Shown here: positions 15,496 through 33,112 of the stretch, in pieces
Layout of the letters: every line of letters starts with the position of its first letter
Numbering within the stretch: position 1 is the first letter of the stretch
Assembly: GCF_013179285.1 (NCBI RefSeq)
Contig: NZ_WVNW01000010.1
Location: 1-41,946, forward strand
DNA length: 41,946 nt
Reading direction: 5' to 3'
DNA from: Roseobacter sp. HKCCD6576-2
Lineage (GTDB): Bacteria > Pseudomonadota > Alphaproteobacteria > Rhodobacterales > Rhodobacteraceae
Program-made: the position numbers and the translations under genes
Notes under the pieces: generated by a model
The model's input: only the letters and a program-made list of their open reading frames with translations
Told to the model about the DNA's origin: nothing
Database searches by the model: none

Positions 15496-16494
15496 TCATG
15501 AGGTTTCGCCCGGGATCAGCGTAAACTGAAGATCCGTCACGCGCGGAACCTCTTGGCCCGCCAAAGCATTCAGCACCGCCCGCGCCGCGCGCTGACCAAC
15601 CCGATAGCGCGGGAAACGAACGGTGGTCAGCCTTCGGGGCAGTGATTGACCAATGTCGAGGCCGCCAAACCCGGCAACCCCGACACGTCCGGGGACTTGC
15701 CACCCCATCTCCTGGCAGAGAAACACGGCGCCCACTGCCATCAGATCATTACCAAAAATGACGGCATCGATCTTATCGTCCTTCTCGAGCAAGCGGATCA
15801 GGCCGGCTCGGCCTTCGGCAACTCCTGGCGGAGCGTCGTAGAGGTTCGGCGCCACAATTGGATAGCCGCGTGCGGCAAGGTGGCCGCGAACCGCCGAGAA
15901 CCGGGCGGAGGCGGCGAACTCGGTCCCGTGCCAGCCGAGAAAGCCAATTCTCTGGTAGCCCTTGGACAGCAGGTGATCAGTCAATGCCCGGGCCGCCGCG
16001 CCGTGATCGAACCCGACGCAGCGGTCGATCGGTTCGCCCGATACTTCCATGATCTCGATCACCGGCACTTCGGCCCGGGACAACAGTTTCTTGGTCCGGG
16101 TCGTGTGGACGAAATCGTTAACGATAAGGCCGGCGGCGTTCCAGGACAGAAGGGATTCCACGAGGCTCTCCTCGCGGTTCACATCGTAATCCGTGACGCC
16201 CACAACCGGGTTATATCCAGCCTTCTCAAGCTCCTTGGTGATCCCGGCCAGAACCTCGGGGAAGATGCCGATCTGCATGGACGGAAGGATCACGCCGATT
16301 TGGTTCGACCGCGCAGAACTCAGCGATCCGGCCATGCGGTTCTTCACATAGCCCATCTCCTCAACTGCGGCGAGCACCAGGTCCCGAGTTCTGGCGGAGA
16401 CGGTGCCACGGCCCGACAGGACCCGGCTGACGGTCATGTCGGAAAGCCCCAGTGACCGGGCGATGTCCTTCTGTGTATATCGGTGGTTGGTCAG
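15496..16494 (-). CDS. LacI-family regulator with probable non-ATG start
   Basis: LacI/GalR-type repressor. The first ATG (16437) would begin inside the DNA-recognition helix (MTVSRVLSGRG). Reading upstream in frame recovers the missing half of the helix-turn-helix (YTQKDIARSLGLSD), with no stop and no ATG, GTG or TTG. The best candidate start is CTG at 16494, preceded by AGGGAAGAG; ATT at 16509 is the alternative. The periplasmic-binding-protein-like effector domain follows (GVILPSMQIGIFPEV, VIFGNDLMAVGAVF, GVAGFGGLDIG). Total about 332 residues. Divergent from the second tct operon, which it probably controls through the inverted repeat at 16510-16531. Confidence 0.8.
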   Translation of the reverse strand: MTNHRYTQKDIARSLGLSDMTVSRVLSGRGTVSARTRDLVLAAVEEMGYVKNRMAGSLSSARSNQIGVILPSMQIGIFPEVLAGITKELEKAGYNPVVGVTDYDVNREESLVESLLSWNAAGLIVNDFVHTTRTKKLLSRAEVPVIEIMEVSGEPIDRCVGFDHGAAARALTDHLLSKGYQRIGFLGWHGTEFAASARFSAVRGHLAARGYPIVAPNLYDAPPGVAEGRAGLIRLLEKDDKIDAVIFGNDLMAVGAVFLCQEMGWQVPGRVGVAGFGGLDIGQSLPRRLTTVRFPRYRVGQRAARAVLNALAGQEVPRVTDLQFTLIPGETS

Positions 16495-16509: not shown

Positions 16510-16531
16510 TGTTGACGTTAGACATTCAACA
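16510..16531. promoter_or_regulatory. candidate operator of the adjacent LacI regulator
   Basis: TGTTGA (16510-16515) and TCAACA (16526-16531) form a 6-bp inverted repeat with a 10-bp centre, in the gap between the divergent LacI gene and the second tctC. It lies 16 bases beyond the proposed CTG start. The TTGACG at 16513 could also be part of a -35 element, but no well-spaced -10 is seen. Confidence 0.4.
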
Positions 16532-23576: not shown

Positions 23577-23596
23577 ATGGTAAAAGCATTTACCAT
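23577..23596. promoter_or_regulatory. LacI-type operator, copy 1
   Basis: ATGGTAAA (23577-23584) and TTTACCAT (23589-23596) form a perfect 8-bp inverted repeat around AGCA. The core TGGTAA-N6-TTACCA is identical to that at 32023-32042 next to the LacI gene at 32108. It sits 23 bases before the binding-protein-like gene at 23619. Confidence 0.75.
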
Positions 23597-23618
23597 CAAG
23601 GAAACCGAGACCTGATCC

Positions 23619-24743
23619 ATGCCGACCCTCAAAGGAATGACCTGGGACCACCCACGCGGCTATGCCTGTCTTGAGGCGGCGTCGGCGCTTTATGAAACCC
23701 AGACCGGTATCTCGATTTCTTGGGATCGCCGCAGCCTTCAGGCCTTCGCCGACGCGCCGATTGAGGCGTTGGCCCGCGACTACGATCTGATCGTGTTGGA
23801 TCACCCCCATGTCGGCCTGATCGCCGAAAGCGGGAGCCTGAGCCCTCTGACGATGCCAGAGGAAGCGGCAGAGAGTTCCATCGGCGGAAGCCTGGAAAGC
23901 TACCATTGGCGCGGCCAGCTCTGGGCCTATCCAATTGACGCGGCCAGCCAGGTCGCCGTCCGTCGACCCGATCTTTGCGCCGAGCCTTTGACGCATTGGG
24001 ACGAACTGCTGCGGGCCGATCACCGGGAATTTCGGCTCGTCACCCCGCTTTTGCCGGTCGATGCCTTCGACATGATGATGACACTGGTCGCCAGCCGGGG
24101 GGAAGAGGATCTGCCCGTCTCAGAGACGGAGTTTGTCTCTCAGGCCAACGGCCTTCTGGCGCTCAAAGTCCTTAAGACACTCTACCGGCTTGGCCCCCCT
24201 GAGGCCGTCACCTGGAACCCAATCCGTGTGCTGGAGATGATGGCCACAACCGATGACTTCGCCCAAAGCCCCTGTCTCTTCGGCTATATCAACTATGCCA
24301 AGCTCGGGTTTCGGCCACATATGTTGGAGTATTGCCATTTGCCCATTTTCGCCGATTACGAGCGCCGGCGCGGCATTCTCGGCGGCGCCGGGATTGGTGT
24401 CTCGGCGCAGAGTGCGTCGGAGGAGGAGGCCATGGGTTTCGCCAGATGGGTCGCGTCCGAACCCGTCCAATCGGGCGTCTATCTGGAGCATGATGGCCAG
24501 CCCGCACATCGCGCAACTTGGGAGCGGATGGGGGGCGATCCACGCTACACAGGATTCCTAACAGGCGCACGGGCGACGATGGAGGCCGCTTGGACCCGCC
24601 CCCGCGCGCCTTGGTTTCTGGGCTTTGTCGATGCCGTTTGCGAGATCATGCCCTCCTTCTTCCTCAATGACCGGTCAGAGGAGGCGTTCCTGCGCGACGT
24701 CAACGCGCTCTACCGAAAATACCGAGATTGGGAGGCCGCATGA
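23619..24743 (+). CDS. family 1 extracellular solute-binding protein-like, no signal peptide
   Basis: A 374-residue protein related to carbohydrate ABC-transporter binding proteins (LKGMTWDHPRGY start; DLIVLDHPHVGLIAESGSL; LWAYPIDAASQVAVRRPDL; FGYINYAKLGF). It begins directly with the mature-type fold and has no hydrophobic leader or lipobox, and no ABC permease or ATPase gene is nearby. A small subfamily of such leaderless proteins exists; whether they are exported otherwise or act as cytosolic sugar-binding sensors is not known to me. First gene after operator copy 1; an upstream AAGGAA is farther than ideal from the ATG. ATGA-coupled to the next SDR. Confidence 0.75.
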   Translation: MPTLKGMTWDHPRGYACLEAASALYETQTGISISWDRRSLQAFADAPIEALARDYDLIVLDHPHVGLIAESGSLSPLTMPEEAAESSIGGSLESYHWRGQLWAYPIDAASQVAVRRPDLCAEPLTHWDELLRADHREFRLVTPLLPVDAFDMMMTLVASRGEEDLPVSETEFVSQANGLLALKVLKTLYRLGPPEAVTWNPIRVLEMMATTDDFAQSPCLFGYINYAKLGFRPHMLEYCHLPIFADYERRRGILGGAGIGVSAQSASEEEAMGFARWVASEPVQSGVYLEHDGQPAHRATWERMGGDPRYTGFLTGARATMEAAWTRPRAPWFLGFVDAVCEIMPSFFLNDRSEEAFLRDVNALYRKYRDWEAA

Positions 24744-25456
24744 AGATCGCCGTCATCACTGGGGGTAACAAAGGGCTGGGCCTAGCCCAGACGTGCCGGT
24801 TCCTAGAGGCCGGGTTCCGCGTCTATGTCGTCGCGCGGTCCGAGGGTGAGATCGACACCTTATCGGGAGAGGTGCGCTTCACCACGACCGACCTCATGAA
24901 CTGGCGCGATACCTCGTATCTCGATACCATTCATACTGCGGAGGGCCACATTGATGTCCTGGTCAACAATGCCGGGATGCATCTAAAAAAGCCGGTTTGG
25001 GAGGTGGCGACGCAGGAGTTGGACGAGCGGCTCGATATCAATGTCAAAGCCGTGTTTGCCGCCTGCGGGCGCTACGTCGCGCTTCAGAAAGACCAGGGCG
25101 GTGCGATTGTGAACATTTCGTCGATGGGTGGCCTCCTAGCCCTGCCCTTCGCAGCCGCCTACGTGACGGCGAAGACGGCGGTCATCGGCCTGACCCGCTC
25201 GGTCGCGGTGGATGGCGCCGAATTCGGCATCCGCTGCAACGCCGTGGCGCCTGGCTTCATCGACACCGACATGACCCGCGCGATCTTCGAGAAAGACCCG
25301 GAACGGCGGACCAAGATCGAAGGACGCATCCCGGGCGGCGAATTTGGCCGCCCAGAGGATGTGGCCAACGCCGTGTTCTTCCTCGCTTCCGATCAGGCGG
25401 CCCATATCAATGGCGTGGTCCTGCCGGTCGATGGCGGCTTTTCCATCGGGTTTTGA
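24740..25456 (+). CDS. SDR-family oxidoreductase
   Basis: A 238-residue short-chain dehydrogenase: TGGNKGLG cofactor loop, NNAGMH, catalytic Ser in NISSMGG, Y-V-T-A-K, and the late motif PVDGGFSIGF. ATG at 24740 follows GGGAGG and overlaps the previous stop; a frame extension of four codons upstream is ignored. Likely a sugar- or hydroxyacid-active dehydrogenase acting with the zinc dehydrogenase and kinase downstream. Confidence 0.88.
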   Translation: MKIAVITGGNKGLGLAQTCRFLEAGFRVYVVARSEGEIDTLSGEVRFTTTDLMNWRDTSYLDTIHTAEGHIDVLVNNAGMHLKKPVWEVATQELDERLDINVKAVFAACGRYVALQKDQGGAIVNISSMGGLLALPFAAAYVTAKTAVIGLTRSVAVDGAEFGIRCNAVAPGFIDTDMTRAIFEKDPERRTKIEGRIPGGEFGRPEDVANAVFFLASDQAAHINGVVLPVDGGFSIGF

Positions 25457-25457
25457 G

Positions 25458-26474
25458 ATGTACGCGAAATCCCTGCTCACCAAGGCCCGGCAGATCGACA
25501 TCGAAGAGGCCGAAATGCCCGACGAGATCGCACCGGATCAGATCCGCCTGCGCCTGGCCACGGCCAGCATTTGTGGCACCGACATGCATTATTTTCGGCA
25601 TTTCGCGAATGCTGGGTTTGCGCTGGATTACCCCGTGACGCTTGGGCATGAGGCCTGCGCTTGGGTGGAGGACGCCAATGGCCACGACTTTGAGTTCGGG
25701 CAGTTGGTGGCGATCAACCCGGTCATCAACTGCGGGACCTGCGAGAACTGCCAGACGGGCGACATCAATATGTGCCCCACCAAACGCTTCCCCGGATCGG
25801 CCACCACCAAACCCCATATCGACGGGTTTTTCCGAGAGCGTTTCGACTTCCCCGCGCGCTGCTGCCATAGCGTTGCCAAGGGCGTCGCGCCCAATCATCT
25901 GACCTTCGCCGAACCGCTCGCCTGCGCGATGCATTCGGTCAACCGCGCCGGGGTGCAGATAGGTCAACGGGTGCTGGTGACGGGCTGCGGACCAATGGGG
26001 CTGTTGGCGGTGGTGAGTTCCGTGGCAAAGGGGGCGGAGGTCGAGGTCACCGATCTAAAGCCTGAAGCCATCGCGGCGGCGGAGGCTGTGAGCGCCAAGG
26101 GCGGTTATGTGATTGGCCAGACCGCCCCGCCTGACAGCGCCTATGACGTGGTGATCGAAGCCAGCGGGTCGCCTCACGCTTATAACCAGGCGCTGTTCGC
26201 TGTGCGCAAACAAGGCGTGATCGGGGTTCTTTCGCTGATCCAACCCTCCGAAGTGCCGATCAACCTCCATCTGAACGCGCTTAAAGAGGTCTCGTCGGTT
26301 GGCTCGATCCTCTTCACCCATGAATTCGCTGAGGCCGTCGATTTGATCGAGCGTGGGACCGTCGATTTCGAGGCGATCACGGCGGCGCGTTTCCCGATCT
26401 CAGAGACCCAAGCCGCCTGCGACATGATGGCCGATCGGCGGGCCGTGGGCAAAGTCCTGATAACACCGGCATGA
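25458..26474 (+). CDS. zinc-dependent alcohol dehydrogenase, L-idonate 5-dehydrogenase-like
   Basis: A 338-residue medium-chain dehydrogenase. Catalytic zinc ligands C39 (SICGTD), H64 and E65 (LGHEA); structural zinc cysteines C92, C95, C98 and C106 (NCGTCENCQTGDINMC). Cofactor loop GCGPMGLLAV (G-x-G-x-x-G) with acidic D after the next strand (VTDLKPEA). The spacing resembles L-idonate 5-dehydrogenase and related polyol dehydrogenases. The start at 25458 begins one base after the SDR stop; a longer frame upstream overlaps that gene and is not family-like. Operates with the PfkB kinase next in line. Confidence 0.88.
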   Translation: MYAKSLLTKARQIDIEEAEMPDEIAPDQIRLRLATASICGTDMHYFRHFANAGFALDYPVTLGHEACAWVEDANGHDFEFGQLVAINPVINCGTCENCQTGDINMCPTKRFPGSATTKPHIDGFFRERFDFPARCCHSVAKGVAPNHLTFAEPLACAMHSVNRAGVQIGQRVLVTGCGPMGLLAVVSSVAKGAEVEVTDLKPEAIAAAEAVSAKGGYVIGQTAPPDSAYDVVIEASGSPHAYNQALFAVRKQGVIGVLSLIQPSEVPINLHLNALKEVSSVGSILFTHEFAEAVDLIERGTVDFEAITAARFPISETQAACDMMADRRAVGKVLITPA

Positions 26475-27379
26475 CTGAGATACTGGCGCTCGGCGAGGCC
26501 CTAATCGAATTCCTGCGCCTGCCCGACCCCGTGGACGGCCGCCCGGCTTATCGCCAAGGCTTTGGTGGCGACACCTCAAGCGCGATCATCGCGGCGGCGC
26601 GGCAGGGGGCCACCACAGGCTATATCAGCGCGGTGGGCGGCGATCCGTTTGGGAAGGAGTTGCTGGCGCTTTGGGCGCGGGAGGGTGTCGATGCCGCCAC
26701 CGTTCTCACCCGCCCGCAGGACCCAACTGGGGTCTATTTTGTCCAACCCCATGCCTCTGGCCGCAGTTTCAGTTACCCCCGCCGCAGCTCGGCGGCAAGC
26801 CTTTATGGCCCCGACGATTTGCCATTAGAAGCCATCCGAAAGGCGTGCATCCTGCATGTCTCAGCGCTCAGCCAGTCGATCAGCCCGACCATGCGTGCCG
26901 CTGTCTCCCGTGCGTGCGAGGTGGCGCGCGAGGCCGGGGTGCTCGTCTCTTTCGACACCAATCTGCGCCTGAACCTCTGGACCTTGGAGGAGGCGCGGGA
27001 GGCGATCTTTGGTCTCCTGCCCTTGGCCGATATCGTGCTACCGAGCGATGACGAGGCCGAGATGCTGCTTGGGACCTCCGATGAAGCCACCATTCTCGAC
27101 CGTTTCGCTGCTTTTGGCGCAGCTCATGTGATCCTGAAACGGGGGGACCGGGGGCCGGTCTTGCGCATGGGCGGCGAAGACACCAGGTTGGATGTGCCGA
27201 AGGTCACAGCGGTCGATTCCACCGGGGCGGGCGACAGTTTCGCCGGGGCCTGGCTGGCCTATTTCCTCGAAACCGGGGATGCCCGCATCGCCGCGGAACG
27301 TGCCGTGATGGTCGCCGCCGACACCGTTAGGGGCTACGGCGCAGTCGACCCGATCCCTTATCGGGCGGATATTCTCTAA
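26471..27379 (+). CDS. PfkB-family sugar kinase, 2-keto-3-deoxygluconate kinase-like
   Basis: A 302-residue ribokinase-family enzyme that phosphorylates a sugar or sugar acid. N-terminal LALGEALIEFLR and FGGDTSSAIIAAARQG (substrate-binding G-G-D), mid-region SFDTNLRLNLW as in KdgK, and the C-terminal catalytic loop VDSTGAGDSFAGAWLA with the base Asp. Last gene of its operon, ATGA-coupled to the dehydrogenase. Together with SDR and IdnD-like enzymes it suggests a sugar-acid route leading toward 2-keto-3-deoxy-gluconate 6-phosphate; an aldolase is not in the window. Its TAA overlaps the stop of the convergent gene. Confidence 0.88.
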   Translation: MTEILALGEALIEFLRLPDPVDGRPAYRQGFGGDTSSAIIAAARQGATTGYISAVGGDPFGKELLALWAREGVDAATVLTRPQDPTGVYFVQPHASGRSFSYPRRSSAASLYGPDDLPLEAIRKACILHVSALSQSISPTMRAAVSRACEVAREAGVLVSFDTNLRLNLWTLEEAREAIFGLLPLADIVLPSDDEAEMLLGTSDEATILDRFAAFGAAHVILKRGDRGPVLRMGGEDTRLDVPKVTAVDSTGAGDSFAGAWLAYFLETGDARIAAERAVMVAADTVRGYGAVDPIPYRADIL

Positions 27380-27672
27380 CCCCACAGCCTTTCTGACGCG
27401 ATCCGTGCACCCTCGGCCAGGGTAGCGAGCTTCGCCCAGACCACCCGGTTCTCCACCTCGGTCTTATAGATTGCCTGGCTGGAAAATCCGCAATCAGTGG
27501 AGGCGATAACATTCTTGCGCTCGCAGCGATCGGCAAATCGAATGATCCGTTCGGCAATGTAGTCCGGATGCTCCACCACGCTTGAGGCATGGGTGATGAC
27601 GCCCGGCAGGTCGTGCGGACGCGGCAGGCTGCCGACATGGGTTGTCAGGATGCGGTTCTTGCTGGTTCTCAT
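27376..27672 (-). pseudogene. MetE-like methyltransferase with large internal in-frame deletion
   Basis: Only 98 residues. The first 22 (KNRILTTHVGSLPRPHDL) are the N-terminus of a cobalamin-independent methionine-synthase-like protein; the rest (VVEHPDYIAERIIRFAD, VIASTDCGFSS, VWAKLATLAEGARIASERLWG) is its C-terminus with the zinc-ligand Cys. Intact relatives are about 370-400 residues, so roughly 280 residues are missing between Asp21-Leu22 and Pro23, yet the frame is kept. It lacks most of the barrel and is very unlikely to be active. Last gene of the CoA-transferase operon; the stop overlaps that of the convergent kinase. Confidence 0.75.
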
Positions 27673-27699
27673 AGCGTCCTCCCTCCGGCGCGTTGGCAG

Positions 27700-28089
27700 T
27701 CAGGGCATCTCTTCGAGAGGGAAATCGATGTGCAGATGGTTGCCGTCGCAGTCGTTGAGATTGATCTGCACCAGCCCGACCTCGGCCACCTCGAACGGTG
27801 TGTAGTCAATCTGTCGGCGGGCGAGATGGTTCTGAAACTCATCCAGACCGGTGGCGCGGAAGGCGATATGCTCCAGTGCCGGAACTACATCCGCGCCCGG
27901 TCGGTGCACATTCGGCGCATCAACCAGATGCAAGATCGCCTGATCACCCAGATAGAGCCAGAGGCCCTCCACCCCCAGGCCATCCGGCCGGGGGCCGATA
28001 CGCAGGCCTAAGATGTCCCCATACCACTCGGCCAGGCGCGCGGTGTCTTCGCTGTGAATATTGATGTGGTCGAAGGCGTGGAGCGGCAT
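27700..28089 (-). CDS. VOC-family (glyoxalase/dioxygenase fold) protein
   Basis: A 129-residue single-module vicinal-oxygen-chelate protein. It begins LHAFDHINIHSEDTARLAEWYGDILGL, with the first metal-ligand His, has LEHIAFRATG in the middle and ends INLNDCDGNHLHIDF with a late acidic/His metal site. Members are isomerases, epimerases or dioxygenases. In an operon with CoA-pathway enzymes an epimerase-like or lactoylglutathione-lyase-like role is possible; no specific one is proven. Confidence 0.85.
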   Translation of the reverse strand: MPLHAFDHINIHSEDTARLAEWYGDILGLRIGPRPDGLGVEGLWLYLGDQAILHLVDAPNVHRPGADVVPALEHIAFRATGLDEFQNHLARRQIDYTPFEVAEVGLVQINLNDCDGNHLHIDFPLEEMP

Positions 28090-28098
28090 CGGCTGTCT

Positions 28099-29055
28099 TT
28101 AATCTCGGTCTAATTCGCGGTTGATTTTGACCCGCCGGACGATCTCGGCATCCCGTTTCGCTTTGAAAGCGTCAGGGTCGCGGGTGGTCCAGTCATAGAA
28201 CCCTTCCCCGGATTTCATACCGAGTTTGCCTTCGGCGAAAAGCGTGCCCACCGGCGTCTCACCGGGATCGGCGGCATTCGACAGATCCGCCCAAACCGCC
28301 TTGGCCGCGTCTGAATTGATCAGGTCGAGCCCGGCCAGATCGGCGTGTTCGAACGCCCCCATGGCGGGTAGACGGCTGGCATAGCCCACTTTCAGGATCG
28401 TGTCGCAGGCCTCGACGGTGACCAGCCCTTGGCCGACCAGCGCGGCGAACTCGCGCAGCACCGCGTGCTGGATGCGCGCCCAGAGAAATCCGGGAATGTC
28501 GGGGCAGAGGACCGGGGTCTTGCCGGTGTCCATCAGTATTGCGGTGGTGAACGCAGTGGTGCGGTCGGCGGTGGCTTTGCCCGGCACGACCTCGACCAGT
28601 TCCACCAAATGAGCGGGCTGAGCGTAGTGAGCGACACAGAAATTCTCAGGCTGGGCCAATGCCGATTGGATATCGCTGGCTGAAAGCGCCGAGGTGGTTG
28701 AAGACAGGACCGCTTCCGGCGCGGCTACGCCTTCGGCCCGGCTCAGCAAGTCCTGTTTGACGATCAGATCCTCCGCCGCGGCCTCGATAACAAACCCGGC
28801 CCCGGCCACGGCGGCGCCCATGCCGGTCTGCACACCGATCCGCCCCAGAACCGCTTGCCGATCGGCGGGCGCAACCAGCCCCTCACGGCTCAGAAAGTCG
28901 AACCCGTCGCCGCAGCGCTCCAAGGCCGCTTCCAGGCTCTCTGCCTGGCGCGCCCAAAGCCGCACCTCCGCCCCGCCAAGGGCGAGCGAAAGCGCAATCT
29001 GCGCGCCCATGGTGCCAGCACCGAGCACCGCACAGACCGGCCGATCACCCGACAT
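28099..29055 (-). CDS. 3-hydroxyacyl-CoA dehydrogenase family protein
   Basis: A 318-residue NAD-dependent dehydrogenase. GAGTMG at residues 12-17 is the cofactor loop; the catalytic segment reads AHYAQPAHLVELVEVVPG, where the usual H-F-F-N-P becomes H-Y-A-Q-P (Asn replaced by Gln). C-terminal helical domain with PGFLWARIQHAVLREFAALV and GMKSGEGFYDW. Such single-domain members include L-carnitine and 3-hydroxybutyryl-CoA dehydrogenases; the Q-P variant suggests a non-CoA or unusual substrate. Its start overlaps the MBL gene's end by 11 bases. Confidence 0.87.
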   Translation of the reverse strand: MSGDRPVCAVLGAGTMGAQIALSLALGGAEVRLWARQAESLEAALERCGDGFDFLSREGLVAPADRQAVLGRIGVQTGMGAAVAGAGFVIEAAAEDLIVKQDLLSRAEGVAAPEAVLSSTTSALSASDIQSALAQPENFCVAHYAQPAHLVELVEVVPGKATADRTTAFTTAILMDTGKTPVLCPDIPGFLWARIQHAVLREFAALVGQGLVTVEACDTILKVGYASRLPAMGAFEHADLAGLDLINSDAAKAVWADLSNAADPGETPVGTLFAEGKLGMKSGEGFYDWTTRDPDAFKAKRDAEIVRRVKINRELDRD

Positions 29056-30010
29056 AATGCCAGCCGTCCCTTCTCTGCTCCGCCAAGCCTTTGGCCGCGA
29101 AATCCTTCAGGCTTGCGTCAATCGACACCAGCGCCCGCCATTCCCGCACCATGTTCTGGTCGTCGCAGCATTTGTCGCGCAACTCGCCAAAACTGATCCC
29201 CGGATTGGCCGTCATATGCGTGACCATCGAGGTCTCCACCTGATCCACCCGCCGTCGGCAATCGTTCACCAATTCCACCGTCTCGGCGGCGGTTTTTACC
29301 TCGTCATGTGCAAACAACACCGCTTGGACGTCGCGCTTGCACAGGAACCGTTCGATCTTGTCGAAGGTCGCGCGCATGACATTGGGGTCTTCGTAAAGGT
29401 AGAGCACCGGGTTGAAGGGTGGCAAAAGTGGGTCGGCGATGACCAGGGTTTTTGTGGAGCGTTCAAAAAACCCGACCTCTGCCATAGAATGGCCGAACAC
29501 CTCGACCACCTCCAACTCCACCCCGCCGCCCAGGTCGATCACGTCGCCATCTTTGATGAATTGCTCAATCGGCCCTTCGACCGGCCCCATCCAATCCAGA
29601 TACTCCGCATTCAGATCGAAATGCTCGCCCTCAGGGAAGGCATGAACGATGGCCTTGGCGTTCAGCATATTGTCGGCCACACGGTCGGCGCGCCCCGCAT
29701 GGCCCAGAATGGTGCAGCCGGTCTCGGCCTTGAGCCAGCCGTTATTGCCCACATGGTCCATATGCTCATGGGTCAGAAGCAACAGGTCAAGGTCGCTGTA
29801 AGCCAACCCCAGCTCCTCAAATGCCTGTTTCAGGTCACCCAGGCCCCCATAAAGCCCGCTGTCGATTAATGCGATTTTCTCCGCGCCGCGCACGAAGAAC
29901 ACCCGCGTCGCGGTCTTGCCCTCATGATCGCCGGGCAGGCCCATGGAGACGACCGCGAAAGGGCCAGATTGGTGAGAGATGACGGATTTTGCCATGTTTG
30001 TTTGCCTCAT
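29045..30010 (-). CDS. metallo-beta-lactamase-fold hydrolase
   Basis: A 321-residue MBL-fold protein. The binuclear metal site is complete: T-H81-E-H83-M-D85-H86, a later FGHSMAEVGFF His and ADPLLPP Asp, and FAHDE His. After the MBL domain (to about 235) a C-terminal region of roughly 85 residues (DQVETSMVTHMTANPGISF) resembles the helical tail of glyoxalase II-like thioesterases. Acting beside CoA-transferase, hydratase and dehydrogenase, it may hydrolyse a CoA thioester. ATG at 30010 overlaps the hydratase stop; an alternative ATG lies 15 bases downstream. Confidence 0.86.
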   Translation of the reverse strand: MRQTNMAKSVISHQSGPFAVVSMGLPGDHEGKTATRVFFVRGAEKIALIDSGLYGGLGDLKQAFEELGLAYSDLDLLLLTHEHMDHVGNNGWLKAETGCTILGHAGRADRVADNMLNAKAIVHAFPEGEHFDLNAEYLDWMGPVEGPIEQFIKDGDVIDLGGGVELEVVEVFGHSMAEVGFFERSTKTLVIADPLLPPFNPVLYLYEDPNVMRATFDKIERFLCKRDVQAVLFAHDEVKTAAETVELVNDCRRRVDQVETSMVTHMTANPGISFGELRDKCCDDQNMVREWRALVSIDASLKDFAAKGLAEQRRDGWHYVG

Positions 30011-30801
30011 TGTCCTTTAAAGTCCGGGTCGCGTTTTTCCATGAAGGCCGCGATGCCCTCCTTGCCGTCCTCGGTGGCGAAAAGCGCCCCCAAGACGCGC
30101 TGTTCCATGGTCAGACCAGCCGAGAGCGCCGTATCGAGCCCGTCATCGACCACCCGCTTGGCCTCGGAGAGCGCCACGGGCGCCATGGTGGCCAGGCTTT
30201 CGGCGAATTCCAGAGCACGCGGCATCAGCGCCTCGGGCGCACAGGCCTCAAGCGCGGCGCCATACTCCACTGCCTCCGCCGCCGTGATCATCCGGCCCGT
30301 CATCAGTAATTCCTTGGCCCGCATCGCGCCCACTAGGCGCGGCAGCCGCTGTGTCCCCCCGCCGCCGGGCAGAAGGCCGAGCTTGATTTCCGGCAGGCCC
30401 AGCTTGGTCTTTTCGTTCACGAAGATGAAGTCGCAACACATGGCCAATTCGAACCCGCCGCCAAGCGCATAGCCATTGACCGCGCAAATCGTGGCCTGGG
30501 GCAGGCCCGCTATGGCGTCGAAGGTTTGGCGGGAGCGGCGCTGGAACCCGTCGAACACGGTCTGACCCGCCCCGTGATAGCCCGCTATATCGGCGCCTGC
30601 GACAAAGCCGCGCCCGGTGCCGGTCAGCATCAAGACCCGGACCTCATCCCGCCGCCCGTAAAGGCCCTGTACATAGGTGCCCAACGCCTCCATGGTCTCG
30701 AAATTGAGCGCGCCCAGCGCTTCCTCGCGATCCACCCGCAGAACCTCAATTGGGCCGCGGCGGTCCAGCGCCAGGTTGGGATGCAGCCGCTCCTCACTCA
30801 T
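30007..30801 (-). CDS. enoyl-CoA hydratase/isomerase
   Basis: A 264-residue crotonase-family protein. The oxyanion-hole strand reads GFVAGADIAGYHG (A-G-A-D-I) and the second oxyanion segment NGYALGGGFELAMCCDF; the catalytic Glu is in LPEIKLGLLPGGGGTQRLPRLVG. Complete and close to consensus. Hydrates a 2-enoyl-CoA, placing it between the CoA-transferase that makes the thioester and the hydroxyacyl-CoA dehydrogenase. Overlaps both neighbours by four bases. Confidence 0.9.
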   Translation of the reverse strand: MSEERLHPNLALDRRGPIEVLRVDREEALGALNFETMEALGTYVQGLYGRRDEVRVLMLTGTGRGFVAGADIAGYHGAGQTVFDGFQRRSRQTFDAIAGLPQATICAVNGYALGGGFELAMCCDFIFVNEKTKLGLPEIKLGLLPGGGGTQRLPRLVGAMRAKELLMTGRMITAAEAVEYGAALEACAPEALMPRALEFAESLATMAPVALSEAKRVVDDGLDTALSAGLTMEQRVLGALFATEDGKEGIAAFMEKRDPDFKGQ

Positions 30802-31985
30802 CCGATGGCCCCCGTTTCGCGCAGGTCCGAAACCCGCTCGACATCCAGGAATTCGCCCAGAACCTCGTCGGTATGTTCCCCCACCTGCGGCGGGACAAAC
30901 CGTAGGCTGGCCGGGGTTTCGCTGAAGATCACAGGGCTGGCGATGGCACGGATGCCGCCCGCTTTAGGATGGTCCATCTCCACCAGCCGTGGAGAGTTCA
31001 GGCGCACGAGCTCCTCCATCGCCTCTGCCGAGCTGCGGATCGGGGCGGACCACACATCGGCCTCGCCGAACAGCACCATGATCTCTTCGGTGGTCATTTT
31101 GCGCGTGCTCTCATCGATCCTCAGCTTCGCTGCATCCCGCTCCGCCCAGGCATCCATCTTTGCCAGCCCTGGGTCTCCCAGAAGCGGCCCCAGCTTACCC
31201 AGAGGGCACATGGCGATCGCCACCCAGCCATCGGCGGTTGGATGCGCCCCATAAGGCGCGTCGTTCCAGCAGGATGCGACACCCGCCTCAGACCGCTCCA
31301 GCGTGATATCCTGATTCAGGACAGCGAAATTCTCCTGCCCCATCATGTTGAGCGTGGCGGAATAGAGATTGGTTTCGACCTTCTGGCCCACCGCGTGCCG
31401 GTCCCGCGCGATCAGCGCCCCGAGGATACCGATGGCCAACGCCTGGCTCGCCGCGAAATCGGCAACCGGTGTGCCGCAATTGGTGGGCGGGTCGCCCCTC
31501 CGGCCGGTATTCATCATCAGCCCCGACATCGCCTGGATCAGCAGATCCTGCCCCGGCATCCCTTGCTCAGCCATCCAACTGCCTGCGCCCCAGCCGGAGC
31601 CGCTGGCATAGATGATCTTGGGGTTCGCGGCCCGGAAATCCTCGTATCCGAGGCCGAGGCGCTCCATGACACCAGTGCGGAAGTTCTCGGCCACCACGTC
31701 GCAGCTTTTCGCCATTTCCAGAAGCAGCGCGCGCCCCTCTGGGTGTTTGAGGTCCACCGCCACCGAGCGCTTGTTGCGGTTAAAGGCATGGAACGCCGCG
31801 CTGTCGCCACCGACAAATTGCCCGATCATCGGCATCGCGCGCATCCACTCACCTTTGCCAGGGCGCTCTATCTTGACGACATCGGCCCCTATATCGGCCA
31901 GCGTCTGGGTGCAAAGGGGGCCCAGCATCATCTGGGTGAAGTCCAGAACACGAATACCATCCAGAGCTTGCGGCGTATCAGCCAT
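30798..31985 (-). CDS. CaiB/BaiF-family (class III) CoA-transferase
   Basis: A 395-residue type III CoA-transferase, moving CoA between carboxylic acids. Begins ALDGIRVLDFTQMMLGPLCTQTLADIGADVVKIERPGKGE, with the family's GP and GADVIKVE-like motif; FNRNKRSVAVDLKHPEGR and the active-site region GTPVADFAAS (catalytic Asp) follow. ATG at 31985 has AGTGAGGA six bases upstream; the longer open frame up to 32042 would run through the operator and is rejected. First gene of a six-gene operon directly under operator copy 2. Confidence 0.9.
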   Translation of the reverse strand: MADTPQALDGIRVLDFTQMMLGPLCTQTLADIGADVVKIERPGKGEWMRAMPMIGQFVGGDSAAFHAFNRNKRSVAVDLKHPEGRALLLEMAKSCDVVAENFRTGVMERLGLGYEDFRAANPKIIYASGSGWGAGSWMAEQGMPGQDLLIQAMSGLMMNTGRRGDPPTNCGTPVADFAASQALAIGILGALIARDRHAVGQKVETNLYSATLNMMGQENFAVLNQDITLERSEAGVASCWNDAPYGAHPTADGWVAIAMCPLGKLGPLLGDPGLAKMDAWAERDAAKLRIDESTRKMTTEEIMVLFGEADVWSAPIRSSAEAMEELVRLNSPRLVEMDHPKAGGIRAIASPVIFSETPASLRFVPPQVGEHTDEVLGEFLDVERVSDLRETGAIG

Positions 31986-32022
31986 CGCAGTCCTCACTTC
32001 TTGATTCCGAATCGTTTTATTA

Positions 32023-32042
32023 TTGGTAATACGATTTACCAA
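32023..32042. promoter_or_regulatory. LacI-type operator, copy 2, in the CoA-transferase/lacI gap
   Basis: TTGGTAA (32023-32029) and TTACCAA (32036-32042) are a perfect inverted repeat with a six-base centre; the core TGGTAA-N6-TTACCA is the same as at 23577-23596. It lies 38 bases from the CoA-transferase ATG and 66 bases from the divergent lacI start, so one repressor could control both. Confidence 0.78.
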
Positions 32043-32107: not shown

Positions 32108-33112
32108 TTGGCAACTCTGGCAGAGATCGCGAAACGCGCCGGTGTCTCCCCCGCCGTCGTCTCGCGTGTCCTCAACAAGGACACGACGCTCAGGATCGCC
32201 AAGGAGACGCGAGAGCGGGTCGAGGCCGTCCTTCGCGACACGAATTATGCGCCCAATGTCGCTGCGCAATCCCTGCGCTCGGCCAAGTCAGGGACGATCG
32301 CGGTTGTGCTGCACGACATCGCCAACCCGGTTTATGGAGAGATATTGCGCGGCGCCCAGGAAGAGGCGGAGCGCGAGAACAAGGCGATCCTTTTGGGCGA
32401 TGCCGCCGTTGGGGGTACCAGCGGATCGCGCTTGGCCCAGATGATCGGCGGCGGGGGTGTGGACGGGCTGATCCTGCAGGCCAGCGGCACCTGGACCGAT
32501 GCGCTGATTGTCCAGGCCGCACTGCAGGAGGTGCCGGTTGTGTTGCTCCAGACCCGGCTCGATATCGAGGCTCATCTGATCCTGTTGCCCGATGCCGAAG
32601 CCGCGGCGATGGCCACGGCGCATCTCAAAGGGCTTGGCCACCGCCGGATCGGCTGTTTGGCGACCGAACCCGGGCTGACCTTTACCGAAGACCGGATGCA
32701 GGGATGGCGTCAAGAGATGGGCGGCGACGCGGACGAGGTTTGCGTCATCTACTCCGGCCCCACGGCTCCGGAAGGTGAGGTCGCGACGCACGACCTGCTG
32801 ACACGCCACCCCGATCTGACCGGCTTGGTCTGCTTCAACGCAGTCGCGGCGGTGGGTGCCCTACGCGCGGCGCGCGCCATGGGGCGAAACGTGCCCGGAG
32901 ACCTCTCCGTTATCGCGATCCATGACCTCAAATTCGCCGGTGATCTCCGCGTGCCACTTACTGTGGTCCGAATGCCCCTGGCCGAGATGGGGCGTGTCAG
33001 CATCGGGATGATCTGCGCCCCGAACGGTGCACGCGCCACCATCCACCGGATCACGACGCCGCCGGAGCTTGTGATCCGCGAAAGCGCTACGCCGCCGGTA
33101 CGGTCTGGTTGA
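32108..33112 (+). CDS. LacI-family transcriptional regulator (TTG start)
   Basis: A 334-residue LacI/GalR regulator. The helix-turn-helix is complete (TLAEIAKRAGVSPAVVSRVLNKD) with hinge (ERVEAVLRDTNYAPNVAAQSL), then the ligand domain (IAVVLHDIANPVYGEIL, GVDGLILQASG, GLVCFNAVAAVGALRA). The start is TTG at 32108 with AAAGGG upstream; the next in-frame ATG is far inside. Divergent from the CoA-transferase operon with a palindromic operator between, and the same palindrome precedes the operon at 23619. It most likely represses both and itself until a sugar-acid-type inducer binds. Confidence 0.88.
   Translation: MATLAEIAKRAGVSPAVVSRVLNKDTTLRIAKETRERVEAVLRDTNYAPNVAAQSLRSAKSGTIAVVLHDIANPVYGEILRGAQEEAERENKAILLGDAAVGGTSGSRLAQMIGGGGVDGLILQASGTWTDALIVQAALQEVPVVLLQTRLDIEAHLILLPDAEAAAMATAHLKGLGHRRIGCLATEPGLTFTEDRMQGWRQEMGGDADEVCVIYSGPTAPEGEVATHDLLTRHPDLTGLVCFNAVAAVGALRAARAMGRNVPGDLSVIAIHDLKFAGDLRVPLTVVRMPLAEMGRVSIGMICAPNGARATIHRITTPPELVIRESATPPVRSG

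What the first reader, a model, noticed from the sequence alone, without database searches (positions are those of the whole stretch)
23577..32042. One LacI operator (TGGTAA-N6-TTACCA) links two convergent operons and the regulator gene
Perfect palindromes with the same core and the same six-base centre occur at 23577-23596, before a four-gene operon (binding-like protein, SDR, zinc dehydrogenase, PfkB kinase), and at 32023-32042, between a six-gene CoA-pathway operon and a LacI gene. The two operons converge with overlapping stop codons. This predicts a single regulon joining sugar-acid oxidation/phosphorylation with CoA-thioester chemistry, an unusual pairing.
Basis: partly seen in the sequence, partly recalled or inferred. 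Interest (0 to 1): 0.75.

Follow-up and report, generated by a model that had tools for sequence, protein, structure and literature searches.

The report
LacI switch over sugar–CoA pathway
A sugar-type repressor protein appears to switch two neighbouring gene sets on and off together through one shared DNA sign, tying sugar-like and coenzyme-A chemistry into one breakdown pathway whose substrate is still unknown.

Summary
The sites are real: TGGTAA-N6-TTACCA occurs exactly twice in the 4.41 Mb genome, at 23578-23595 and 32024-32041. They are not perfect palindromes and their centres differ, so that detail is wrong. The regulon prediction holds. In same-genus genome G003 the operons lie over 1.4 Mb apart, yet its only two exact sites stand before the binding-protein operon and between the CoA operon and lacI. 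In 39 related loci there are 30 exact sites, against 0 for 89 permuted half-sites; consensus TGGTAAANCGNTTTACCA. Before the 60%-type binding-protein gene a site within 2 mismatches is found in 11 of 11 loci with this LacI and in 0 of 8 places without it. Two relatives read in detail also carry it before a sugar ABC transporter-sulfatase operon. Best reading: a local LacI regulon for breakdown of a polyhydroxy, probably sulfated, compound through CoA thioesters. Binding, inducer and substrate are inferred. PfkB is accessory. The 'binding protein' looks cytosolic, and 20 of 29 homologue loci hold a class III CoA-transferase beside it.

The parts
23578..23595 (.). operator 1, TGGTAAAAGCATTTACCA, 23 nt before the start codon of the SBP-like gene
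   Evidence: conserved upstream of SBP-like orthologues
32024..32041 (.). operator 2, TGGTAATACGATTTACCA, between the caiB-type gene (38 nt from its start) and lacI (66 nt from its start)
   Evidence: conserved between CaiB and LacI orthologues
32108..33112 (+). LacI-family regulator (334 aa, TTG start)
   Evidence: Pfam LacI HTH and Peripla_BP_3; helix-turn-helix region largely conserved in the 23 proteins aligned
23619..24743 (+). SBP-like protein without evident signal peptide; MalE/SmoF-type fold
   Evidence: Pfam SBP_bac_8; AF2 mean pLDDT 93; Foldseek
24740..25456 (+). SDR oxidoreductase
   Evidence: Pfam adh_short_C2
25458..26474 (+). zinc-dependent dehydrogenase, nearest NCBIfam model L-idonate 5-dehydrogenase, below its cut-off
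26471..27379 (+). PfkB-family kinase, nearest models KDG/KDGal kinase, below cut-off; accessory
   Evidence: full-length in 4 of 37 loci
27376..27672 (-). remnant of a MetE-like gene (98 aa, middle missing)
27700..28089 (-). VOC/glyoxalase-fold protein
28099..29055 (-). 3-hydroxyacyl-CoA dehydrogenase-family protein, His143/Glu155 invariant in the 8 aligned
29045..29995 (-). metallo-beta-lactamase-fold hydrolase with THEHMDH motif
30007..30801 (-). enoyl-CoA hydratase-family protein, Glu118 and Glu138 invariant in the 6 aligned
30798..31985 (-). class III CoA-transferase (CaiB/BaiF family), Asp147 invariant in the 10 aligned

Best explanation
A local catabolic regulon. The LacI-family protein at 32108-33112 binds 18-bp operators of consensus TGGTAAANCGNTTTACCA as a dimer and represses (a) the SBP-like/SDR/zinc-dehydrogenase(/PfkB) operon, (b) the convergent CoA operon (CoA-transferase, enoyl-CoA hydratase, MBL hydrolase, 3-hydroxyacyl-CoA dehydrogenase) and (c) its own gene. 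A small molecule derived from the imported, sugar-like and probably sulfated substrate binds its periplasmic-binding-protein-like domain and lifts repression of both operons together. The enzymes would then oxidise the polyhydroxy compound (SDR, zinc dehydrogenase), load the resulting acid onto CoA (CaiB type), hydrate or dehydrate it and oxidise it at C3 (hydratase, dehydrogenase), and cleave the product (MBL). Shown here: the sites, their conservation, their near-restriction to these genes, and their co-occurrence with this LacI. Inferred: binding, repression, inducer, substrate and order of reactions.
For: Two exact sites in 4.41 Mb. G002 (LacI 90%) has both. G003 (LacI 43-44%) has exactly two sites genome-wide, one at CaiB/LacI and one over 1.4 Mb away directly before SBP-like, SDR and dehydrogenase orthologues. 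In 39 loci of 696 kb: 30 exact and 47 within 1 mismatch, against means of 0.00 and 0.63 (maximum 11) for 89 permuted half-sites. The centre is CG in 88 of 94 symmetrised rows, as in 1173 of 1303 LacI-family motifs in PMC4052901 (passages). Site within 1 mismatch upstream of LacI in 22 of 27 loci and of the 60%-type SBP-like gene in 10 of 11, within 2 mismatches in 11 of 11. No site at 8 of 8 places of 60%-type SBP-like genes in whose fetched stretches no such LacI was seen. Residues expected of the three CoA enzymes are invariant in the 10, 6 and 8 sequences chosen for alignment (residue roles recalled).
Against: No binding or expression data. Operator 1 in the window has GC, not CG, at its centre. 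With 1 mismatch allowed the reversed control pattern gives more places in the own genome than the pattern (8 against 3), and at 2 mismatches the permuted half-site TGATGA gives more hits (73) than TGGTAA (59) in the 39 loci. No sigma-70-like promoter was found around either site. Two loci without a LacI match passing the cut carry a site before CaiB: L059 (1 mismatch, no CG centre) and L073 (exact; a partial LacI match was seen there). The distant LacI orthologues of L072, L074 and L077 (41-44%) have only degraded sites at 2-3 mismatches, and the 40%-type SBP-like gene of L074 has none (best 4 mismatches). G019, with a 40% LacI, has no exact site. In this window the sulfatase-transport genes lie beside another LacI with another repeat, so no transport gene here is shown to belong. 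The substrate is unknown.
Confidence: 0.85

Rival explanations
1. The sites are bound by another LacI-family regulator (for example the one at 15496-16437 beside the Tct transporter genes), not by the 32108-33112 protein.
For: The own genome has 13 matches to the LacI query, and a second LacI-type gene lies in the window.
Against: The Tct side has a different inverted repeat, TGTTGA..TCAACA. TGGTAA sites are present in loci whose held stretch shows only one LacI, the 32108 type (L048, L051, L063, L065), and they track that LacI.
Confidence: 0.06
2. The two sites regulate their operons, but the operons serve separate pathways that merely respond to the same inducer.
For: L049 has the CoA operon, LacI and site but no SBP-like operon in its 20.9 kb; L173-L178 have SBP-like, SDR and dehydrogenase near other CoA-transferases and without this LacI.
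Against: The dehydrogenase gene faces the CoA operon from downstream in 15 of the 36 loci (my count; in L053 and L075 with over 4 kb between), and the shared site persists when the operons are unlinked. SBP-like homologues sit beside CoA-transferases in 20 of 29 loci.
Confidence: 0.2
3. Chance palindromes in AT-rich intergenic DNA.
For: In the 392 other family genomes (without G000 and G245) 28 exact hits occur, about 0.07 per genome.
Against: Conservation and placement in relatives; both exact sites of the genome lie at this locus.
Confidence: 0.01

Closest known systems
LacI-family local catabolic regulons (Ravcheev et al. 2014, PMC4052901; passages read)
   Same: Even, mostly CG-centred palindromes, over 75% of sites 140-30 bp upstream of start codons; autoregulation in 72% of the regulators studied; mostly few targets and carbohydrate genes
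   Different: Targets here are a CoA-transferase/hydratase/3-hydroxyacyl-CoA dehydrogenase set; words beginning with 'CoA' or 'sulfat' do not occur in that paper's main text. Its supplements and RegPrecise itself were not read
GapR global LacI regulon of Rhodobacteraceae (same paper, passages)
   Same: LacI family, a related bacterial group, palindromic operator
   Different: GapR is described as controlling glycolysis and Entner-Doudoroff genes in 5-13 operons; here there are two exact sites genome-wide, both at this locus
L-idonate/5-keto-gluconate catabolism (idnD, idnO, IdnR; recalled)
   Same: Zinc dehydrogenase nearest the L-idonate dehydrogenase model; the SDR matches gluconate 5-dehydrogenase among many SDR models; LacI regulator
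   Different: Hits are far below the curated cut-offs; CoA enzymes present
Carnitine/oxalate/mesaconate CoA-transferase pathways (class III CoA-transferases)
   Same: CaiB/BaiF family, with hydratase and 3-hydroxyacyl-CoA dehydrogenase relatives
   Different: No equivalog cut-off reached; combined with LacI control and, in relatives, sugar-type transport and sulfatase
Sulfoquinovose-binding protein SmoF and maltose-type binding proteins (solved structures)
   Same: Fold of the SBP-like protein (TM to query 0.77-0.83 for the T. maritima MalE1 and SmoF entries named)
   Different: About 16% identity, no evident signal peptide; its operon in the window holds no ABC transporter gene

Membership tests
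LacI-family transcription regulator | LacI HTH plus periplasmic-binding-protein-like sensor domain | tested here: met
   Pfam PF00356 and PF13377 above cut-off
LacI-family transcription regulator | even palindromic operator with central CG | tested here: met
   consensus of 47 sites; window site 1 has GC instead
LacI-family transcription regulator | autoregulatory site at its own gene | tested here: met
   site 66 nt upstream of lacI; 22 of 27 loci within 1 mismatch, in most the same site that stands before CaiB
LacI-family transcription regulator | binds the operator; released by an effector | not testable with these tools
   needs protein and DNA
ABC-transporter solute-binding protein | signal peptide / export | tested here: not met
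   22 aligned homologues (of 24 found; two with late starts left out) show no N-terminal hydrophobic stretch before the conserved WD..R segment; judged by eye, no predictor run
ABC-transporter solute-binding protein | solute-binding-protein fold | tested here: met
ABC-transporter solute-binding protein | permease and ATPase genes in the same operon | tested here: not met
   operon in the window is SBP-like, SDR, dehydrogenase, PfkB
class III CoA-transferase | family match and catalytic Asp | tested here: met
   PF02515 322.9 bits; Asp147 invariant in the 10 aligned (role recalled)
enoyl-CoA hydratase (crotonase) | two catalytic Glu | tested here: met
   Glu118 and Glu138 invariant in the 6 aligned (role recalled)
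3-hydroxyacyl-CoA dehydrogenase | family match and His-Glu pair | tested here: met
   PF02737/PF00725; His143 and Glu155 invariant in the 8 aligned (role recalled). Lambda-crystallin (L-gulonate 3-dehydrogenase, recalled) is a weaker relative, so a non-CoA substrate is not excluded
L-idonate 5-dehydrogenase (IdnD) | NCBIfam equivalog cut-off | tested here: not met
   190.8 against 469 bits
KDG/KDGal kinase | NCBIfam equivalog cut-off | tested here: not met
   165.5 against 400 bits
GapR regulon | 5-13 target operons of central carbon metabolism | tested here: not met
   two exact sites genome-wide; GapR's own consensus was not compared

The most novel reading that the evidence does not exclude
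Marine alphaproteobacteria and a few other bacteria break down a polyhydroxy, often sulfated, acid through CoA thioesters. A cytosolic protein with the fold of a sugar-binding protein acts not in transport but as a dedicated partner or enzyme of a class III CoA-transferase, and in this lineage the whole set is switched by a LacI-family repressor that senses a sugar-like molecule.
Probability: 0.35. Interest if true: 0.75.

Novelty: new variant of a known kind. Interest (0 to 1): 0.52.

Why it matters
It turns a motif guess into a testable regulon with a consensus operator, so the substrate can be sought by asking what releases the repressor. It also points to a catabolic route, undescribed as far as my searches of an open-access library tell, that joins sugar-type uptake, desulfation and oxidation with CoA-thioester chemistry, and to a solute-binding-protein fold that seems to work inside the cell next to a CoA-transferase. 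That pairing recurs in 20 of 29 family loci and in two loci of metagenome bins labelled Thermoleophilia and Actinomycetota.

Tried and rejected
Chance sites: rejected. Control by the second LacI of the window: rejected as main reading, since its side carries a different inverted repeat. A larger regulon in this genome: TGGTAAANCGNTTTACCA with up to 3 mismatches gave 7 places against 13 for the reversed control; the two known sites are the best, so no further member is claimed. Promoter and terminator scans found nothing. PfkB as a core enzyme: rejected, a full-length copy in 4 of 37 loci. Literature: no paper held the term sets; others (4 papers; 4; 104, 12 listed; 2) listed papers, of which none listed describes this regulon by its title and the shown start of its abstract; only PMC4052901 was opened, for passages. 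The library is open-access only, so absence there is weak. The substrate could not be fixed; choline sulfate, sulfoquinovose and idonate were thought of (from memory) and left open.

Rows dropped before counts: one search examined 29 of the 53 SBP-like places (those with stored loci, own genome left out); four of its five CoA-transferase queries were taken from neighbours of SBP-like genes (L178, L180, L183, L189), so it is tuned to such neighbours, though with the window's own CoA-transferase as query 9 of 10 wider stretches also showed one adjacent (these ten overlap the 29 and are not added). One search left out L083 (G002) and counted only upstream stretches of 100 bases or more. One search left out L050 and L083: L050 is G001, kept as L036; no stretch of G002 was counted. 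Alignments 78-80 used 8 of 31, 10 (7 of 32 plus three distant ones) and 6 of 32 sequences at hand. Many loci are short contigs, so absences of genes are lower-bound statements.
Full report
What was checked. The pattern TGGTAANNNNNNTTACCA occurs exactly at 23578-23595 and 32024-32041 in the window; with up to 2 mismatches there are 3 matches, 0.35 expected, and 1 of 100 shuffles reached 3. In the whole 4,413,114-base genome these are the only two exact matches. With 1 mismatch allowed there are 3 places, against 8 for the reversed control, so only exact matches discriminate; the third place (contig 3) lies inside a coding frame that looks like a large transporter subunit (label by eye).

Background rate. 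Of 394 genomes drawn from the family, 30 have an exact match and only two have two: the own genome and G245. That leaves 28 single hits in the other 392, about 0.07 per genome. The reversed control gave, by my hand count of the listing, about 62 hits in 53 genomes, so the pattern itself is not enriched family-wide. In G245 one site stands before the CaiB orthologue and the other just beyond the LacI orthologue, before sulfatase and SDR genes; a third, with 1 mismatch, stands before a 28%-type SBP-like gene.

Conservation. LacI orthologues were found at 90% (G002), 60% (G001), 44% (G003) and 40% (G019) identity among 101 genomes. An exact search in eight genomes gave two sites in G002, one in G001 and two in G003, none in G004, G005, G019, G023 or G099. 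G003 is the strongest case: one site lies between its CaiB and LacI orthologues at 2,455,192, the other at 94,455 of the same 3.86 Mb contig, directly upstream of SBP-like, SDR and dehydrogenase orthologues. The two operons are unlinked there, so the shared site is not a by-product of neighbourhood. G001 has a degraded second site (CGGTAAAACGTTTTACTA, 2 mismatches) before its SBP-like gene.

Wider set. A search with the MBL protein alignment returned 64 loci, of which L048-L083 (36) hold clear relatives at 42-95% identity. Over 39 loci (696,295 bases) the TGGTAA palindrome occurs 30 times exactly and 47 times within 1 mismatch; 89 permutations of the half-site give means of 0.00 and 0.63, with a maximum of 11. 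At 2 mismatches it ranks second (59 against 73 for TGATGA; mean of the others 11.75). The 47 sites give TGGTAAANCGNTTTACCA, with CG at the centre in 88 of 94 symmetrised rows. In a published survey of LacI-family regulons (PMC4052901, passages read), 1251 of 1303 motifs are even palindromes and 1173 have a central CG.

Does the site follow this LacI? In loci with a LacI of at least 40% identity, a site within 1 mismatch lies upstream of LacI in 22 of 27, of CaiB in 20 of 27 (mostly the same site), and of the 60%-type SBP-like gene in 10 of 11; within 2 mismatches the numbers are 24, 21 and 11. The LacI exceptions are L067 and L171, where lacI stands elsewhere and the CaiB site remains, and the distant L072, L074 and L077. 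Of the seven CaiB exceptions, in L056, L057 and L080 a 26%-type SBP-like gene stands between LacI and CaiB and the site lies before it; L070's counted CaiB is away from its LacI; L072, L074 and L077 are the distant ones. Where no LacI passed the cut, 6 of 8 CaiB upstream regions have no site within 2 mismatches; the two others are L059 (site without CG) and L073 (a partial LacI match was seen). At 8 of 8 places of 60%-type SBP-like genes in whose fetched stretches no such LacI was seen (L075, L113-L119; L075 and L114 are probably the same genome) the best match has 4 or 5 mismatches. Against the trend, L074 has a 44% LacI but no site before its 40%-type SBP-like gene.

Anatomy. Operon A (23619-27379, +): SBP-like protein, SDR, zinc dehydrogenase, PfkB kinase. 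Operon B (31985-27376, -): class III CoA-transferase, enoyl-CoA hydratase, MBL hydrolase, 3-hydroxyacyl-CoA dehydrogenase, VOC protein, MetE-like remnant. The dehydrogenase gene of operon A faces operon B from downstream in 15 of the 36 loci (my count; in L053 and L075 over 4 kb lie between). PfkB in full length was found in 4 of 37 loci, so it is accessory. In five loci (L048, L051, L063, L065, L067) and in L171 an exact site also stands just beyond lacI. In L048 and L065, the two read in detail, it precedes an operon of a MalK-type ATPase, an exported solute-binding protein, two permeases and the sulfatase, with SDR genes behind (Pfam for L048). In the window the sulfatase genes lie instead behind Tct transporter genes and another LacI, with a different inverted repeat between them; its longer form is shared by L049 and L064, 2 of the 7 relatives looked at. 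The sulfatase has a C-x-P-x-R segment (CIPAR) and no evident signal peptide (sequence; motif recalled), which fits a cytosolic enzyme acting on an imported small sulfate ester.

The SBP-like protein. It matches Pfam SBP_bac_8 weakly, shows no N-terminal hydrophobic stretch in 22 aligned homologues (by eye), and is predicted with mean pLDDT 93 to have a MalE/SmoF-type fold. Among 29 homologue loci of the family search, 20 have a CaiB-type frame within about 1.5 kb (four of the five queries came from such neighbours). With the window's own CoA-transferase as query, 9 of 10 wider stretches showed one adjacent. The own genome holds only 5 such genes in 4.41 Mb, so adjacency by chance should be about 1% or less (my estimate). 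Some of these stretches also hold a galactarate/altronate dehydratase, a Gfo/Idh oxidoreductase, an amidohydrolase, an IclR regulator or a MaoC dehydratase, again mixing sugar-acid and CoA-thioester chemistry.

Mechanism. Shown: sites, conservation, near-restriction to these genes, co-occurrence with the LacI. Inferred: a LacI dimer binds both sites and represses both operons and itself; a sugar-like ligand induces. The expected catalytic Asp of the CoA-transferase, two Glu of the hydratase and His-Glu pair of the dehydrogenase are invariant in the 10, 6 and 8 sequences aligned (roles recalled), so a CoA-thioester sequence is plausible: activation, hydration or dehydration, oxidation, cleavage by the MBL hydrolase. 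The dehydrogenase family also holds lambda-crystallins, so action on a free sugar acid is not excluded.

Verdict. The finding stands after two corrections of detail and extends to a consensus operator, a likely third operon in some relatives and a candidate new partnership. No binding or expression evidence exists here. No paper held the term sets in the open-access library; that is weak evidence of novelty.

Noticed in passing
15496-16437 (-) and 16510-16531: A second LacI-type gene divergent from the Tct transporter-sulfatase genes; between them an inverted repeat TGTTGA..TCAACA, whose longer form TTGTTGACGCCAGACAATCAACAA stands in L049 and L064.
   Followed up: partly
27376-27672 (-): A MetE-like gene reduced to its first about 22 and last about 76 residues; the G002 relative spans about 1.15 kb.
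   Followed up: partly
L070 (record titled Spirochaetales metagenome bin): The LacI, operators, SBP-like operon and two MBL copies occur in a bin labelled Spirochaetales, with a sulfatase right behind CaiB-ECH-MBL-HADH; horizontal transfer or a binning error.
   Followed up: partly
L113-L141, L180-L189: SBP-like genes lie beside CaiB-type CoA-transferases in 20 of 29 family loci, some with sugar-acid genes.
   Followed up: yes
L067, L171, L058: Loci in which lacI or a second, 27-28%-type SBP-like gene stands elsewhere, with operator-like sites beside the moved genes.
   Followed up: partly
L048-L083 record titles: Some carriers look animal-associated by name (Hoeflea poritis, Pacificoceanicola onchidii) and many are metagenome bins, some with codes I recall as from sponge studies; not checked.
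   Followed up: no
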